DNA of 16,738 nt from Anaerolineaceae bacterium (GTDB lineage Bacteria; Chloroflexota; Anaerolineae; Anaerolineales; Anaerolineaceae): assembly GCA_011620445.1 (NCBI GenBank), contig WOZB01000202.1:1-16738 (forward strand). Direction: 5' to 3'. A program made the position numbers and the translations under genes. The notes beneath the pieces were generated by a model. The model searched no databases. It had not been told where the DNA came from and saw only the letters and a list, made by a program, of their open reading frames with translations. This document shows positions 2,865 to 11,179 of the stretch, piece by piece (position 1 is the first letter of the stretch; each line of letters begins with the position of its first letter).

Positions 2865-2899
2865 CACAGATCTATCAATATTTGATAGGTCTGTGTTTT
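2865..2899 (+). terminator. Intrinsic terminator of the sugar transporter operon
   Basis: A 14-bp stem pairs CACAGATCTATCAA (2865-2878) with TTGATAGGTCTGTG (2882-2895) around a 3-nt loop, followed by TTTT (2896-2899). The single imperfect position is a U-G wobble if transcribed on the + strand but an A-C mismatch on the other. This orients the terminator to the plus strand and to the transporter genes. Confidence 0.8.
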
Positions 2900-3042: not shown

Positions 3043-3438
3043 ATGAAAATCCTTGCCCACAAACAGGAGATATGTACAGGCTGCCGCAACTGCGAAGAAG
3101 CCTGTGCTGATTTCTACTTTAAACGGACCGACCGTAACTACTCCTCAATCCGCATAACCAATAATGACAATACTTTTCACGCCACAAAGTGTACTCAGTG
3201 CGGGGAGTGCATCAACATGTGTACCTCAAACGCCATTTACCGCGACCGTCTGGGTGTTGTGCGAATTGACAAAAATAAGTGCGTAGGCTGCCTTGGCTGT
3301 GTAGGGTTTTGTTCTGAACTATCTATGTTCTACGCTGATGACTTACCAGTACCCTTCAAATGTGTGGCCTGCAATGTTTGCGTCAAGGCTTGCCCGGAGG
3401 GCGCGCTTGAAATCTTGGTCAGCAAGGTGAAGGAGTAA
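3043..3438 (+). CDS. Ferredoxin-like protein with four [4Fe-4S] cluster motifs (AOR electron-transfer subunit)
   Basis: This 131-residue iron-sulfur protein probably carries electrons to or from the AOR encoded next. Four complete CX2CX2CX3C motifs are visible: C11-C14-C17-C21, C50-C53-C56-C60, C80-C83-C86-C90 and C107-C110-C113-C117. In such polyferredoxins the last cysteine of one motif usually pairs with another to complete each cluster, giving four [4Fe-4S]. No signal peptide or membrane segment is present, so it is cytoplasmic. It resembles the small AorA-type subunit of multi-subunit bacterial AORs and HycB-like subunits. AAAGGA (3028-3033) supports the ATG. The AOR gene starts 2 nt after its stop, with its AAGGAG site inside the end of this gene. 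No FAD/NAD-binding AorC-like subunit follows. Confidence 0.88.
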   Translation: MKILAHKQEICTGCRNCEEACADFYFKRTDRNYSSIRITNNDNTFHATKCTQCGECINMCTSNAIYRDRLGVVRIDKNKCVGCLGCVGFCSELSMFYADDLPVPFKCVACNVCVKACPEGALEILVSKVKE

Positions 3439-3440
3439 AC

Positions 3441-5588
3441 ATGGCCCGTAAAATCTTAAAATCTTACGAGTACAAGCCCGCGAAACTAAACCGTGGCTAT
3501 ACCCGAAAATCGCTTTACATCAATGTTGGTGATCTGTCTGTGCAAGCAAAAGACATTTCGCAGATGATGATCGATAAGTTTGTAGGCGGCAAAGGCTTTG
3601 ACCTTTACTATCTCTGGCATGCGACTCTGCCCGAAACAAAATGGGATGACCCGGAGAACGAAATTGTAATGAGTGCGGGACCATTGGGGGGCATGACCCA
3701 GTATTCCGGTACAGGTAAGACACTGGTTTGCGGAATCTCGCCCATGACGGGAATCCCAATTGACAGCAATGTTGGGGGATACTATGGACCTTTGCTGAAG
3801 TTTTCGGGTTGGGACGCGCTTGAGTTGCAGGGTAAATCGGATAAGGACCTGGTTATCTTTATCGATGGCAATAAGGGTTTGATCCAAATCGAAGAGGACG
3901 ATGGCTTACCTGAAGATACCCATTTGCTGAACGAAAAACTGACCGAAGAGTACGCAGAAGATGAAGATGATAAAGTAAATATCTCGGTTGTCTGCACCGG
4001 TAGTGCTGCACCGCATATTCGCTTTGGCATGTTGAACTTCTCTTTCTATGACCCCCGCCGCAAGACTTGCCGGGTTAAACAAGCCGCCCGCGGTGGATTA
4101 GGTACAATCCTGCGGGATAAGAAGATTAAGGCCCTGGTGGTTAAGTTCAAGGGAGTTAAGCCAAACTTAAACGACGTGGCCGACATTTCGACCATCAACA
4201 AAATCGGTGTTAAATACGCCAAAGAAATGCATGACCTGGACCAGAAACAGAATGGCATTCGTAAAATTGGCACCGCTAATACAGTGGCGATCATGAATAA
4301 GTACGATCTTCTTCCTACCCGCAACTTCCAGGCTGGCGGAGATCCCGAAGCTGTGAAGATTTACCCTCAAGTATTTATCGACAACTTCATTACGCAGGGT
4401 ATCCACGATGGCTGTTGGTATGGTTGTACCATGTCTTGCGCCAAAACCGCCGACCACTTCAAGCTGCTGACGGGACCTTACAAAGGTCAATGCGTTACAG
4501 TAGATGGCCCTGAATATGAGTGCGTTGCCGGGCTGGGAGCCAACCTGGGTGTTTTTGACCCACGGGCGATCCTGGAAGAGAACTTCTACTGTGACACTTA
4601 TGGCGTGGACCTGATTTCGTTTGCTACCTGCCTGGCTTTTGTGATGGAATGTTTTGAGCGCGGGCAAATTAACCTTGAGAATACAGGCGGCTTGGACTTG
4701 CATTTTGGCAATAGCGAATCGGTGCTTGAAATTCTGCATCAAATGTCACGCGGAGAAGGTTTTGGCGTGATCGTTGGCCAGGGCACCAGGCGCTGCAAAC
4801 AGATATTCGTAGAAAAATTCGGCGCGGATCCGAAACTGTTGCAAGACATCGGCATGGAAGTCAAGGGTCTCGAATATGCTGAGTACTGCCATAAGGAAAG
4901 CCTAGCGCAACAAGGCGGCTTTGCTCTGACCAACAAAGGTCCGCAACACGATGAAGCCTGGTTAATTTTTATGGACCAGGTGAACAAGCAAATCCCGAGC
5001 TTTGAGGATAAGGCAGATGCCTTGTACTACTACCCAATGTTCCGAACCTGGTTTGGGCTCTGCGGCCTTTGCAAGCTGCCCTGGAATGATATTGTGCCCG
5101 CGGATAATGGCAAAACCGATGATCCGGCTAAGGTGCCCGAACACGTGCAGAACTACGTGGATATCTTCAACGCGGTCACTGGTAAAAGTATTGATAAGGA
5201 TGAATTGATCCGCCAATCCGAACGGGTTTATAACTTCCAGCGTGTCTTCAGTGTGCGCATGGGGCATGGCACCCGGGCAGAAGATTACCCGCCTTATCGC
5301 TCATTGGGGCCCGTAAGCAAGGAAGAGTATCTCTCCCGGCAGGAAATGTATGATAAGCAGATTCGGGAAGTGCATGGGAAAGATCCGGAAAGCCTGAGTA
5401 TCGAAGAAAAGATGCTCATCCAACGTAAACATCGTGAAAACCAATTCGAAAAATTAATGGACGCGGTCTATAAGCGCCGTGGATGGACAAACGAAGGTGT
5501 GCCAACAGCTGAGCACCTCGCTTCAATAGGCATGGATTTACCTGAACTTCTTGAGGTCCTCGAAACGCACGAAAATAAGGAAAAATGA
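3441..5588 (+). CDS. Aldehyde:ferredoxin oxidoreductase family protein (tungsto/molybdopterin enzyme)
   Basis: This 715-residue enzyme is expected to interconvert an aldehyde and a carboxylate with ferredoxin, using a W or Mo bis-pterin cofactor and one [4Fe-4S] cluster. N-terminal cofactor-binding signatures include VGGKGFDLYYLW, SAGPLGGMTQYSGTGK, SNVGGYYGPLLKFSGWDALELQGK and AARGGLGTILRDKKIKALVV. By alignment from memory to Pyrococcus furiosus AOR, E360 (in GPEYE) matches E313 and H503 matches H448, both in the active-site pocket. Cluster cysteines are C325, C329 and C333, spaced CX3CX3C rather than the CX2CX3C of Pyrococcus AOR, with C541 in GLC as the fourth ligand; C544 is also near. The Asp that starts the second DXXGLC pterin motif is replaced (TWFGLC). 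The protein is about 100 residues longer than Pyrococcus AOR. The substrate is unknown; the BamB/WOR-like branch is possible but not shown. Confidence 0.9.
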   Translation: MARKILKSYEYKPAKLNRGYTRKSLYINVGDLSVQAKDISQMMIDKFVGGKGFDLYYLWHATLPETKWDDPENEIVMSAGPLGGMTQYSGTGKTLVCGISPMTGIPIDSNVGGYYGPLLKFSGWDALELQGKSDKDLVIFIDGNKGLIQIEEDDGLPEDTHLLNEKLTEEYAEDEDDKVNISVVCTGSAAPHIRFGMLNFSFYDPRRKTCRVKQAARGGLGTILRDKKIKALVVKFKGVKPNLNDVADISTINKIGVKYAKEMHDLDQKQNGIRKIGTANTVAIMNKYDLLPTRNFQAGGDPEAVKIYPQVFIDNFITQGIHDGCWYGCTMSCAKTADHFKLLTGPYKGQCVTVDGPEYECVAGLGANLGVFDPRAILEENFYCDTYGVDLISFATCLAFVMECFERGQINLENTGGLDLHFGNSESVLEILHQMSRGEGFGVIVGQGTRRCKQIFVEKFGADPKLLQDIGMEVKGLEYAEYCHKESLAQQGGFALTNKGPQHDEAWLIFMDQVNKQIPSFEDKADALYYYPMFRTWFGLCGLCKLPWNDIVPADNGKTDDPAKVPEHVQNYVDIFNAVTGKSIDKDELIRQSERVYNFQRVFSVRMGHGTRAEDYPPYRSLGPVSKEEYLSRQEMYDKQIREVHGKDPESLSIEEKMLIQRKHRENQFEKLMDAVYKRRGWTNEGVPTAEHLASIGMDLPELLEVLETHENKEK

Positions 5589-5782
5589 TTAAGGTCAATA
5601 CAGAAGACCATCCCTGGAACAAGCCGCTCACCGTTCAGGAACTGCTGGACGAGAAAGGGTACATCTTTCCGCATATCGTGGTGCGTATCAACGGCCAGTA
5701 TATTGAGGAAGATGACTACGCTACGCAGCTAGTGCAGGACGGTGATGATGTGTTGGTATTGCATTTAATGGCAGGCGGATAA
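5585..5782 (+). CDS. ThiS/MoaD-like ubiquitin-fold sulfur carrier protein
   Basis: This small protein of 65 residues ends in LHLMAGG. The terminal Gly-Gly is the site that an E1-like enzyme adenylates and converts to a thiocarboxylate in ThiS and MoaD carriers. Hydrophobic strands IVVRING and DVLVLHLM fit the beta-grasp fold. The start overlaps the AOR stop in an ATGA arrangement, and the next gene begins on the last base of its stop (TAATG), so all three are translationally coupled. Context suggests that it supplies sulfur for the dithiolene of the pterin cofactor used by the AOR, as proposed for carrier genes in other AOR operons. A role in thiamine synthesis is less likely because no thi genes are nearby. 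Confidence 0.8.
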   Translation: MIKVNTEDHPWNKPLTVQELLDEKGYIFPHIVVRINGQYIEEDDYATQLVQDGDDVLVLHLMAGG

Positions 5783-6468
5783 TGGAGCCTGGGCAGTATC
5801 TGCGCAACCACGAGGCGATAAGCAGGCAGGAACAGCAGATTCTTGCTGATAAACGCGTACTGGTGGCGGGTTGCGGCGGACTGGGTGGTTATGTCATCGA
5901 GAATTTGGGCCGTGTTGGGGTTGGGCACCTCAGAATAGTTGATGGCGACTTTTTTGAAGAAAGCAATCTTAACCGGCAGCTCTTGAGCTCTCATATAAAT
6001 CTTGGCAAACCCAAAGTGCTGGCTGCCAAACAACGCATGCAAGCGGTGAATCCCCAAGTTGAAGTGGAAGGATTTCAGACTCGGATCACCGCAGAAAACG
6101 CATCGGAATTAATGCAGGGTTGCGACCTGGTTGTGGACTGCCTGGATAACATTTCCTCCCGAAAAATCCTCCAGGCCGCCTGCGAAGAAGCCGGCTTGGC
6201 ATTGGTACATGGCGCGGTGGCAGGTTGGCGTGGGCAGGTGTGTGTGATTTTGCCCGGGGAGAAATTGCTGGATAAACTCTATCCCAATCCGATGGCAGAG
6301 CGCGGCGAAGAAGCCAGGCAAGGTACGCTCAGTTTTACTGCCGCAACCCTCGGTTCGATACAAGCGTCGCTGGTTATTAACCAACTCTTGCACCCTAAAG
6401 ATTGGGGGAGCAGGGTTCTTCTGATTGACTTGAAAGAATTGCTGTTCCACACGATTGTTCTGGATTAA
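5782..6468 (+). CDS. ThiF/MoeB-like E1 adenylyltransferase without zinc-binding cysteines
   Basis: This 228-residue member of the ThiF/MoeB/HesA superfamily should adenylate the C-terminal glycine of the carrier encoded just before it. Visible features are the nucleotide loop GCGGLGG (30-36), IVDGD (52-56), the NRQ motif (64-66), K76/K78 in LGKPK, and VDCLDN with D122, which match the ATP and Mg sites of MoeB. The C-terminal third ends with TLGSIQASLVINQLL, equivalent to the VIGSLQA helix of the family. Unlike MoeB and ThiF it has no CXXC pairs for structural zinc, and no cysteine at all after residue 154, so the usual catalytic cysteine region is absent. It is the last gene of the AOR operon and is not followed by a convincing terminator. 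Confidence 0.82.
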   Translation: MEPGQYLRNHEAISRQEQQILADKRVLVAGCGGLGGYVIENLGRVGVGHLRIVDGDFFEESNLNRQLLSSHINLGKPKVLAAKQRMQAVNPQVEVEGFQTRITAENASELMQGCDLVVDCLDNISSRKILQAACEEAGLALVHGAVAGWRGQVCVILPGEKLLDKLYPNPMAERGEEARQGTLSFTAATLGSIQASLVINQLLHPKDWGSRVLLIDLKELLFHTIVLD

Positions 6469-6650: not shown

Positions 6651-7676
6651 ATGAGTGAAAAGATTTTGGAAGTTCTTTCTACCATCAGCTTGCAAGAGAA
6701 ACATATTAAGAAAATCCGTGAACTTGACTCATCTATTCACCTAAGTTCTTATTCCGGTAAAGATGTAAATTCAATTCCTGCGGAGGTGTGGGAAAAAGCA
6801 GAAGTTCTCTTAACCAACGGGAGAAACCTTCCCAAATTGGAAATGATTCCCAATCTTACCTGGGTTCAAATTTCGTTTGCGGGAGTGGAATCCTTATTGA
6901 AGTCTGACCTGGCTCATAAGCCTGGATTGGTACTGACCTCAGCCAGCGGCACGATGGTGGAAATGATGGGTGAGTATACTCTTATGGCCATGCTGATGCT
7001 GGCTCACAAGATTCCAGAGGTTATCCAACTTCAACGCAAGAAGGAGTGGGGCAATAACATGAGTAAGTCCCTGCAACCACTCGATTTGCGCGGACGAACG
7101 GTGGGAATTGTTGGGTACGGATCCATTGGGCGTGAAATTGCCCGGGTGTTGCAGCCATTTGGTATGAAAATTTTGGCGGCTAAGAAGAATGTGATGCAGT
7201 TGGAAGACGAAGGCTATACCCCGGAAGGTTTGGGAGACCCGAAGGGCAGGCTCTTTACACGTCTGTATCCGATCGAAGCCCTAAAAGGTATGTTGGGAGA
7301 GTGCGACCATGTCGTGATTACCTTACCGCATACTCCTGAAACCCATCATCTTCTTGACAAGGAAATTTTTGATGCAATGAAACCTGGGGCGTACCTTGTG
7401 AATGTAGCCCGCGGTGGCGTAATTAAAGATGAGGATTTGGTGGCAGCTCTCAAAAGCGGCCGTGTAGGTGGGGCAGTGCTGGACGTATTTGAGCCTGAAC
7501 CGCTGCCCGTGGATTCCGCGTATTGGAGTCTACCAAATGTTATTGTGACACCCCATATTTCCGGTGTTTCCGCAGACTTTTTGGATAAGGTTATCGACCT
7601 TTTTGCGGTTAATCTAAAGCGCTACCTCGGTGGACAAGCCCTCTACAATCGGGTCAACCTGGATAAAGGTTATTAA
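6651..7676 (+). CDS. D-isomer-specific 2-hydroxyacid dehydrogenase
   Basis: This 341-residue NAD(P)-dependent enzyme should interconvert a 2-keto acid or glyoxylate-like substrate with the D-2-hydroxy acid. The Rossmann loop is GYGSIG (155-160). The catalytic set appears as R254 in NVARGG, E283 in DVFEPEPLP and H302 in TPHISG, the Arg-Glu-His arrangement of the family. The residues after the second nucleotide-binding strand are AAKKN rather than an acidic residue, which hints at NADP preference (inference). A segment of about 20 residues around EDEGYTPEGLGDPKGRLF is inserted before the strand leading to CDHVVITLPHTPETHHLL. AGAAAGG (6638-6644) supports the ATG. The gene follows the AOR operon, so it could dispose of keto acids, but no shared transcript is shown. 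Substrate unknown. Confidence 0.87.
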   Translation: MSEKILEVLSTISLQEKHIKKIRELDSSIHLSSYSGKDVNSIPAEVWEKAEVLLTNGRNLPKLEMIPNLTWVQISFAGVESLLKSDLAHKPGLVLTSASGTMVEMMGEYTLMAMLMLAHKIPEVIQLQRKKEWGNNMSKSLQPLDLRGRTVGIVGYGSIGREIARVLQPFGMKILAAKKNVMQLEDEGYTPEGLGDPKGRLFTRLYPIEALKGMLGECDHVVITLPHTPETHHLLDKEIFDAMKPGAYLVNVARGGVIKDEDLVAALKSGRVGGAVLDVFEPEPLPVDSAYWSLPNVIVTPHISGVSADFLDKVIDLFAVNLKRYLGGQALYNRVNLDKGY

Positions 7677-11106: not shown

Positions 11107-11179
11107 GCCCCCATCGTCTAGTGGCCCAGGACGCGGCCCTCTCAAGGCCAAAACCGGGATTCGAATTCCCGTGGGGGCA
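11107..11179 (+). tRNA. tRNA-Glu (anticodon CUC)
   Basis: A 73-nt cloverleaf. The acceptor stem pairs GCCCCCA (11107-11113) with TGGGGGC (11172-11178), and A11179 is the discriminator. The D arm is GTC...GAC. The anticodon loop CTCTCAA (11139-11145) carries CTC at 11141-11143, flanked by T11140. The T arm is CGGGA-TTCGAAT-TCCCG (11155-11171). The outermost anticodon-stem pair is a C-A mismatch (11134/11150). CCA is not encoded and must be added after transcription. The acceptor sequence and CUC anticodon are typical of glutamate tRNA. Confidence 0.95.

What the first reader, a model, noticed from the sequence alone, without database searches (positions are those of the whole stretch)
3043..6468. 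Compact AOR operon with its own electron carrier, sulfur carrier and E1 enzyme
Four genes are fused by 2-nt, 4-nt overlap and 1-nt overlap junctions: a four-cluster ferredoxin, an AOR-family enzyme, a Gly-Gly-ending ThiS/MoaD-like carrier and a ThiF/MoeB-like adenylyltransferase. The carrier/E1 pair looks dedicated to cofactor assembly or to sulfurating this enzyme. In known AorABC complexes an FAD subunit takes electrons to NAD; none is here, so the partner may be free ferredoxin or an enzyme elsewhere. The combination suggests a self-sufficient, transferable redox module whose substrate is unknown.
Basis: partly seen in the sequence, partly recalled or inferred. Interest (0 to 1): 0.7.

Follow-up and report, generated by a model that had tools for sequence, protein, structure and literature searches.

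The report
Tungsten enzyme operon with sulfur carrier
Four overlapping genes encode a probable tungsten aldehyde-type enzyme, its electron-carrying subunit, and a small sulfur carrier with its activating enzyme; the carrier pair is the only one of its kind found in this genome, and its relatives mostly lack the usual enzyme for the next step of making the metal cofactor and often carry a different candidate protein.

Summary
The locus is of a known kind: a Class II-like tungsten oxidoreductase (WorS-WorL, ferredoxin-linked) with the ThiS-like carrier WorX and an E1. AOR-linked MoaD/MoeB clusters were described in 2006; WorX was named in 2026, function unknown. 'Dedicated, self-sufficient, transferable' needs correcting. 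In this 91%-complete genome with four AORs, carrier and E1 are the only ThiS-family and over-cut-off ThiF-family proteins found, and no true ThiG was found; they probably serve tungstopterin synthesis in general, not thiamine. Wider finding: genomes with this AOR clade have MoaC (39 of 50) but mostly lack MoaE (found in 5 of 50; 35 of 39 MoaC+ genomes lack it). A MOSC protein lies next to moaC-moaA in 8 of 11 MoaE-less against 0 of 20 MoaE-containing Chloroflexota loci. In some Clostridia worX, E1, moaC, moaA and MOSC are contiguous. Best reading: WorX plus E1 supply dithiolene sulfur, with MOSC the candidate MoaE substitute. Against: none of those 8 MOSC+ genomes has a detected WorX, so MOSC cannot always depend on it. 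No biochemistry was tested.

The parts
2865..2895 (+). terminator-like hairpin between the sugar ABC genes and the operon
   Evidence: 14-pair stem and T-run; 4 terminator-like sites found against 4.4 in shuffles, so weak as statistics
3043..3438 (+). worS-like: 131-aa four-[4Fe-4S] ferredoxin subunit
   Evidence: 16 Cys in 4 motifs; Fer4; matches chain E of 9mqx, E 1.1e-12; chain D of that entry is an AOR
3441..5588 (+). worL-like: AOR-family oxidoreductase, 715 aa
   Evidence: PF02730 and PF01314; active-site residues kept; Fe-S ligand motif CX3CX3C (C325, C329, C333) plus C544, invariant in 16 clade members
5585..5782 (+). worX: ThiS-like sulfur carrier ending Gly-Gly, 65 aa
   Evidence: WorX profile A2; the profile hits ThiS and SAMP2 structures, E. 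coli MoaD is not among its 8 matches
5782..6468 (+). E1-like adenylyltransferase (ThiF/MoeB fold), 228 aa
   Evidence: G30, G32-G35 (GxGGLG), D54, D56, R65, Q66, K78 and D122 kept in 27 of 27 (window plus 26 relatives); no cysteine conserved at 90%

Best explanation
The operon encodes a Class II-like tungsten oxidoreductase (WorL catalytic subunit, WorS four-cluster subunit handing electrons to free ferredoxin) together with the sulfur-carrier part of tungstopterin synthesis. Shown by sequence: the four proteins, their conserved order, and that carrier and E1 are the only such pair found in this genome. Inferred: the E1 adenylates the WorX Gly-Gly end, a cysteine desulfurase system turns it into a thiocarboxylate, and WorX then gives the dithiolene sulfurs that turn cPMP into the pterin for WorL and probably the other three AORs. 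In the MoaE-less relatives the pterin-binding partner is probably the MOSC protein of the moa operon, standing where MoaE would act. The substrate of WorL is probably an aldehyde but is not known.
For: Sole pair: PF02597 1 hit, PF00899 1 hit over cut-off in G000; in genus mate G405 (99% complete) WorX is one of two PF02597 hits, the other a 22-bit hit inside a 745-aa frame. No true ThiG in the 4 genus genomes: their hits score 28-30 bits, true ones 351 or more, in 10 of 56 handles; the G000 hit lies in the window's pdxS. MoaE in 5 of 50 WOR-clade genomes, four of them at 34-37 bits, against MoaC in 39 of 50; in the home phylum MoaE is in 330 of 400, so the search works. MOSC near moaC: 8 of 11 MoaE-less and 0 of 20 MoaE-containing loci of the home phylum, 14 of 16 WOR-clade genomes (Fisher p 2e-5 for the first pair, uncorrected for kinship). 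Contiguous moeA-moeA-MOSC-worS-worL-worX-E1-moaC-moaA-MOSC in L054 (L055 begins inside the same order); at least one of moeA, moaA, moaC, MOSC in the held flanks of 11 of 80 loci; MOSC in 8, of the moa-operon type in 6. A ThiS/MoaD-like carrier lies within about 10 kb of moaC in 9 of 39 MoaC+ genomes, none of the nine with MoaE. E1 keeps adenylation residues but no conserved Cys, which would suit a MoeB-type enzyme (recalled). In Thermococcus kodakarensis a carrier (TK2118) in an operon with an E1 is implicated in the W cofactor of GOR (PMC11323500, abstract and passages).
Against: G000 itself shows no MoaA, MoaC or MoaE, so its pathway is read from relatives; among its nearest relatives with WorX, MoaC was found in G001, G003 and G004 but not in G002, G005, G361 or G000. 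MOSC does not need WorX: of the 8 MOSC+ MoaE-less genomes of the home phylum, none has WorX, and 7 have no ThiS-like hit at all with the WorX profile (which would miss MoaD-type carriers); G340 has none by the PF02597 model either. WorX does not need MOSC: it occurs with strong MoaE in G411 (moaC without MOSC nearby) and G039, and with weak MoaE in G012, G024, G027 and G031; G012 has MOSC as well. 23 of 80 loci lack WorX nearby, 12 of them cut by a contig end. No activity was tested.
Confidence: 0.55

Rival explanations
1. WorX and E1 act after pterin synthesis: WorX thiocarboxylate sulfurates the tungsten site or helps insert the cofactor into WorL, while MPT is made by MOSC (or another enzyme) with sulfur straight from a cysteine desulfurase.
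For: The 6 WorX (74 bits or more) in 400 genomes of the home phylum all lie within about 2.5 kb of this AOR clade, also where MoaE exists (G411); MOSC-type operons exist without WorX in 8 of 8 further genomes. A cysteine desulfurase was proposed as the substitute in acetogens (PMC5039349, passages).
Against: worX and E1 are contiguous with moaC and moaA in L036, L050, L054, L055 and L061, and E1s lie in or beside moa operons in L130, L132, L134 and L136, pointing to pterin synthesis; no second ThiS-family protein was found for the three other AORs of G000.
Confidence: 0.2
2. An ordinary MoaD-MoeB-type pair: MoaE is present but lies in the missing 9% of the MAG or is too divergent for the profile.
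For: G000 is 90.9% complete in 299 contigs; four relatives have MoaE at only 34-37 bits, so more divergent ones may be missed.
Against: 0 of 4 genomes of the genus (91-99% complete) have MoaE; 45 of 50 WOR-clade genomes lack it, several with titles of cultured species such as Alkaliphilus transvaalensis and Fervidicola ferrireducens; the WorX profile matches ThiS and SAMP2 structures, not E. coli MoaD; papers report the same absence in cultured anaerobes.
Confidence: 0.14
3. WorX is a ubiquitin-like protein modifier (SAMP-like) conjugated to WorL or other proteins rather than a sulfur donor.
For: Gly-Gly end, E1 in the same operon; the profile matches SAMP2; the Ubls of T. kodakarensis do both jobs (PMC11323500).
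Against: The recurrent neighbours that I identified are pterin and redox genes; JAB peptidases or E2s were not searched for.
Confidence: 0.07
4. WorX and E1 are the genome's ThiS-ThiF for the thiazole of thiamine.
For: WorX passes the TIGR01683 ThiS cut-off.
Against: No true ThiG in any of the 4 genus genomes or in 46 of 56 handles searched; the E1 is far below the ThiF equivalog cut-off and has no conserved cysteine; steady linkage to AOR.
Confidence: 0.02

Closest known systems
AOR-linked MoaD/MoeB gene clusters (Iyer, Burroughs and Aravind 2006, PMC1779556; passages read)
   Same: Carrier strictly adjacent to AOR, often with MoeB, table also lists a 4Fe-S ferredoxin; sporadic across phyla; proposed to make the W cofactor for AOR and to be a mobile cluster.
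   Different: They treat the carrier as MoaD and list MoaE among the occasional neighbours; here the profile is ThiS/SAMP2-like and most relatives lack MoaE.
WOR Class II with WorX (Putumbaka et al. 2026, PMC13328260; outline, named sections and passages read)
   Same: WorL plus a four-cluster WorS, Fd as carrier; WorX a 'ThiS-like' neighbour predicted to act in pterin biosynthesis, exact function unknown; worX and thiF lie beside CsWOR87.
   Different: The main text has no mention of MoaE, MoaD, MoeB or Anaerolineae (term counts); the clade number of the window protein was not tested (clade 81 is a guess from its gut relatives).
MoaE-less anaerobes: Geobacter metallireducens (PMC2700814), Dehalobacter (PMC4751268), acetogens (PMC5039349); passages read
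   Same: MoaE reported missing although molybdopterin enzymes are present; Dehalobacter authors suggest MOSC proteins as the substitute.
   Different: Single-genome or single-group notes; the passages seen do not link MOSC to a WorX-E1 pair or count it against MoaE.
T. kodakarensis TK2118-TK2117 (PMC11323500; abstract and passages read)
   Same: Carrier plus E1 operon implicated in the W cofactor of an AOR-family enzyme (GOR).
   Different: Archaeal MoaD-family carrier; its AOR-adjacent paralogue there is another gene, TK1065.

Membership tests
WOR Class II (WorL plus WorS) | WorL with both AFOR domains | tested here: met
   PF02730 and PF01314 over cut-off
WOR Class II (WorL plus WorS) | Adjacent WorS with four [4Fe-4S] clusters | tested here: met
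   16 Cys in four motifs, 2 nt upstream
WOR Class II (WorL plus WorS) | No WorN (FAD) and no WorABC subunits in the operon | tested here: met
   None in the four-gene unit or its direct neighbours; 13-14 of the 80 relatives' loci carry FAD or Fe-S genes upstream
WOR Class II (WorL plus WorS) | Binds W-pterin and uses ferredoxin | not testable with these tools
   Active-site residues conserved; no biochemistry
WorX (ThiS-like WOR neighbour) | ThiS-like, Gly-Gly end, beside a WOR | tested here: met
   57 of 80 clade loci have one, 56 ending GG and one GGC
ThiS-ThiF of thiamine synthesis | ThiG in the genome | tested here: not met
   Best G000 hit 28.6 bits, inside pdxS; true ThiG 351 bits or more; MAG 91% complete
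ThiS-ThiF of thiamine synthesis | E1 over the ThiF equivalog cut-off | tested here: not met
   156 of 275 bits
Canonical MPT synthase pathway (MoaD, MoaE, MoeB) | MoaE present in the genome | tested here: not met
   0 in G000; 0 of 4 in the genus
Canonical MPT synthase pathway (MoaD, MoaE, MoeB) | MoaA and MoaC present | tested here: inconclusive
   Not found in G000; present together in genus mate L124
E1 superfamily (ThiF/MoeB) | Adenylation residues (GxGGLG, D, D, R, Q, K, D) | tested here: met
   27 of 27 at the residues listed; their roles are recalled

The most novel reading that the evidence does not exclude
Many anaerobes make molybdopterin or tungstopterin with a non-canonical synthase in which a MOSC-domain protein replaces MoaE (three invariant cysteines, a YiiM/mARC-like predicted fold). 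In those with a tungsten oxidoreductase of this clade, a ThiS-like carrier (WorX) and an E1 without conserved cysteine, encoded beside the enzyme, replace MoaD-MoeB as sulfur donor. In the window's genus WorX and E1 would be the only carrier route of sulfur into the cofactor.
Probability: 0.35. Interest if true: 0.8.

Novelty: new variant of a known kind. Interest (0 to 1): 0.55.

Why it matters
Two open questions meet here: what WorX does (stated as unknown in 2026, PMC13328260) and how MoaE-less anaerobes close the dithiolene step (stated as unknown for Geobacter metallireducens in 2009, PMC2700814, and remarked on for acetogens in 2016, PMC5039349). The counts give a concrete three-protein candidate (WorX, E1, MOSC) that can be tested in vitro and in a genetically tractable gut acetogen. 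If true, molybdopterin synthase would have a second, unrelated catalytic subunit, and tungsten use in many anaerobes would depend on it.

Tried and rejected
Thiamine: rejected because no true ThiG was found. A separate dedicated pair beside a housekeeping pair: rejected for this genome, since no second pair was found. A recent mobile insertion: not supported, flanks partly shared with relatives. Moco riboswitch: none at gathering threshold in the window; only the tRNA was found. A further conserved gene family in moa regions as MoaE substitute: in the 20 regions the only clusters present in 5 or more regions were MOSC/Mog (with some response regulators merged in), MoaA, MoaC and MoeA. MOSC as a hidden MoaE: not supported as a fold; the model (mean pLDDT 88.9) matches YuaD, YiiM and mARC, and no MoaE is among the 50 of 444 matches shown. 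Background rate of MoaE absence in Clostridia and Bacteroidota: not measured, searches spent.
Full report
WHAT IS THERE. The window is part of contig C280 of a MAG of 1.92 Mb, 299 contigs, 90.9% complete. Its five nearest named loci are titled Anaerolineaceae (2) or Chloroflexi/Chloroflexota (3), so I call the home phylum Chloroflexota; the tools name no taxon for the window itself. Four genes on the + strand, 3043-6468, follow a sugar ABC pair (79-2825) after a terminator-like hairpin and are joined by a 2-nt gap, an ATGA overlap and a 1-nt overlap. They encode a 131-aa protein with four CxxCxxCxxxC motifs, a 715-aa AOR-family enzyme, a 65-aa ThiS-like protein ending Gly-Gly and a 228-aa ThiF/MoeB-fold protein. 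Against solved structures the AOR is closest to P. furiosus AOR (1aor, 179 bits) and keeps T278, E360, Y482 and H503 where PfAOR has Thr243, Glu313, Tyr427 and His448 (residue list from PMC13328260). Its cluster-binding motif is CX3CX3C where the alignment shows CX2CX3C in PfAOR, and is invariant in the 16 clade members aligned. The small Fe-S protein matches the Fe-S chain of an AOR-containing PDB entry, 9mqx.

KNOWN KIND. This is the layout of a Class II tungsten oxidoreductase, WorSL, with Fd as acceptor, plus WorX (PMC13328260, sections on Classes I-IV read). That paper calls WorX 'ThiS-like', exact function unknown, predicted to act in pterin biosynthesis, and notes worX and thiF beside CsWOR87. 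In 2006 Iyer et al. already described AOR-adjacent MoaD genes, often with MoeB, as a possible mobile cluster for the W cofactor (PMC1779556, passages).

HOW CONSERVED. S-L-X-E1 are contiguous in the five nearest loci, L013-L017, and in genus mate L244. A WorX lies within 3 kb in 57 of 80 loci and a strong E1 in 26 of 80; of the 23 without WorX, 12 end within 3 kb of the AOR. In 11 Bacteroidota-titled loci the X-E1 pair is divergent from the AOR, so the link survives rearrangement. 56 of 57 carriers end GG and one GGC. Among 400 genomes of the home phylum the WorX profile gives 6 genomes at 74 bits or more and none between 50 and 74; the 5 fetched (L244-L247, L249) and the window all have this AOR clade within about 2.5 kb.

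NOT A SECOND PAIR. In G000 the window pair is the only PF02597 hit and the only PF00899 hit over cut-off, with one further ThiF hit at 21 bits, below it, while there are four AORs. The other three are 26-27% identical to this one. No true ThiG was found in the four genomes of the genus (28-30 bits; the G000 hit is the window's pdxS); ten handles of 56 have ThiG at 351 bits or more. Handles G003 and G405 share coordinates and scores and are taken as one genome, so the 56 are at most 55.

MISSING MoaE. MoaE was sought in 50 of the 80 genomes (40 with WorX nearby, 10 without): 5 of 50 have it, one strongly (G039) and four at 34-37 bits. MoaC, sought in the same 50 and in G000, is in 39 of 51 (39 of the 50). 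Of the 39 MoaC+ genomes, 35 lack MoaE. In 400 genomes of the home phylum MoaE is in 330 and MoaC in 361; 318 have both, 43 have MoaC only, 12 MoaE only. The genus of the window has MoaE in 0 of 4, its family in 2 of 10. G000 itself has neither MoaA, MoaC nor MoaE, and MoaC was also not found in WorX-bearing G002, G005 and G361. I take this as an assembly or binning gap, since in relatives moaC ends a contig (L123) or lies on 9.3- and 4.2-kb contigs (L124, L125); that is inference. MoaE absence has been noted before: G. metallireducens (PMC2700814), Dehalobacter, whose authors suggest MOSC proteins (PMC4751268), and acetogens (PMC5039349); passages only were read.

MOSC IN ITS PLACE. I fetched 16 moaC regions of WOR-clade genomes (16 of the 39 MoaC+), 20 of MoaE+ genomes of the home phylum picked by me across families from the listed MoaC places, and 11 of the 43 MoaC+ MoaE- ones. 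A MOSC protein lies within 1.2 kb of moaC in 14 of 16, 0 of 20 and 8 of 11 respectively. The misses are L126 and L133 (moaC without moaA nearby) and L237, L242, L243 (L237 and L243 come from genomes 88% and 76% complete). One of the 14 (L129, G012) also has a weak MoaE hit. Fisher p for 8/11 against 0/20 is 2.1e-5 and for 21/26 against 0/20 is 1e-8, not corrected for relatedness, and the sampling was mine. Pfam confirms MOSC, in the genus mate L124 fused to a Mog-type domain, in an operon with MoeA, MoaC and MoaA. Some MoaE+ regions have a MoaD-like Gly-Gly protein near moaC instead (L215-L217, by reading). In 33 MOSC sequences (32 different) K-x-C-x3-C and a third cysteine are kept; they are C103, C107 and C116 in A3. 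The predicted fold is that of YuaD, YiiM and mARC.

LINK BETWEEN THE TWO. In L054 the order is moeA-moeA-MOSC-worS-worL-worX-E1-moaC-moaA-MOSC, and L055 begins inside the same order; L036, L050, L061 and L066 have parts of it; in Bacteroidota-titled L084, L086 and L089 moeA-moaA-moaC-MOSC lies downstream of the AOR. In all, 11 of 80 loci have at least one of moeA, moaA, moaC, MOSC in the held flanks and 8 have a MOSC, of the moa-operon type in 6 and of a more divergent type only in L061 and L066. A ThiS/MoaD-like carrier lies within about 10 kb of moaC in 9 of 39 MoaC+ genomes (G013, G014, G015, G018, G021, G025, G035, G040, G048), none of which has MoaE. L131, L132 and L136 pair MOSC with a carrier ending LFPPVGGG beside another AOR-family gene, and L132 and L136 also with an E1.

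AGAINST. The 8 MOSC+ MoaE-less genomes of the home-phylum sample (L233-L236, L238-L241) have no WorX, and 7 of them no ThiS-like hit at all with the WorX profile (G131 is the exception at 38 bits; MoaD-type carriers would be missed), so MOSC does not depend on WorX. WorX exists with strong MoaE (G411, G039) and with weak MoaE (G012, G024, G027, G031). So WorX follows the AOR more closely than it follows MoaE loss, which fits the late-sulfuration rival as well. The background rate of MoaE loss in Clostridia and Bacteroidota is unmeasured. A very divergent MoaE cannot be excluded.

MECHANISM. Shown: genes, order, linkage, residues. Inferred: E1 adenylates WorX (residues kept in 27 of 27, no conserved Cys); WorX thiocarboxylate supplies dithiolene sulfur; MOSC binds the pterin. 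Precedent: T. kodakarensis TK2118 with its E1 is implicated in Wco of GOR (PMC11323500). Electrons: WorL to WorS to free ferredoxin, by analogy with Class II enzymes.

PRINT SEARCH. That MOSC has not been tied to WorX rests on search listings 14, 36, 42, 43, 44, 66, 67, 85 and 86 of an open-access library, and on passages of the papers cited; subscription papers (e.g. Schut et al. 2021) were not readable.

Noticed in passing
G000 contigs C14 (L001), C133 (L008), C143 (L009): Three further AOR-family genes, 26-27% identical to the window's; by reading of the ORFs one lies before 2Fe-2S and FAD sarcosine-oxidase-like genes, one beside Fe-S and HdrA-like genes, one in a sugar or hydroxyacid catabolic cluster; L009 has a masked stretch inside the AOR frame.
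   Followed up: partly
L020, L021, L023-L027, L030 and others, up to 4 kb upstream of worS: Recurrent Fer2_4, Pyr_redox_2, Fer4/BFD and a 385-aa protein upstream of worSL in 11-14 of 80 loci (three of the four types confirmed by Pfam): a possible FAD/NAD electron partner that the window's operon lacks.
   Followed up: partly
L139-L142 (c7 family, 129-137 aa): Divergent MoaE-like proteins (34-38 bits) in four Clostridia-type genomes, with no moaA or moaC cluster member in the fetched regions; function unclear.
   Followed up: no
G340 (L233): Genus mate, 95% complete, with moaC-moaA-MOSC but no ThiS/MoaD-family protein found by either profile.
   Followed up: partly
window 3441-5588: AOR clade-specific shift of the Fe-S ligand motif to CX3CX3C, invariant in 16 members.
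   Followed up: no
window 6651-7676: D-2-hydroxyacid dehydrogenase 182 bp downstream; also a few kb from the operon in L013 and L244 together with rarA, so a possible metabolic neighbour.
   Followed up: partly
window 11107-11179: tRNA-Glu (CTC) by ARAGORN, tRNA by Rfam.
   Followed up: no
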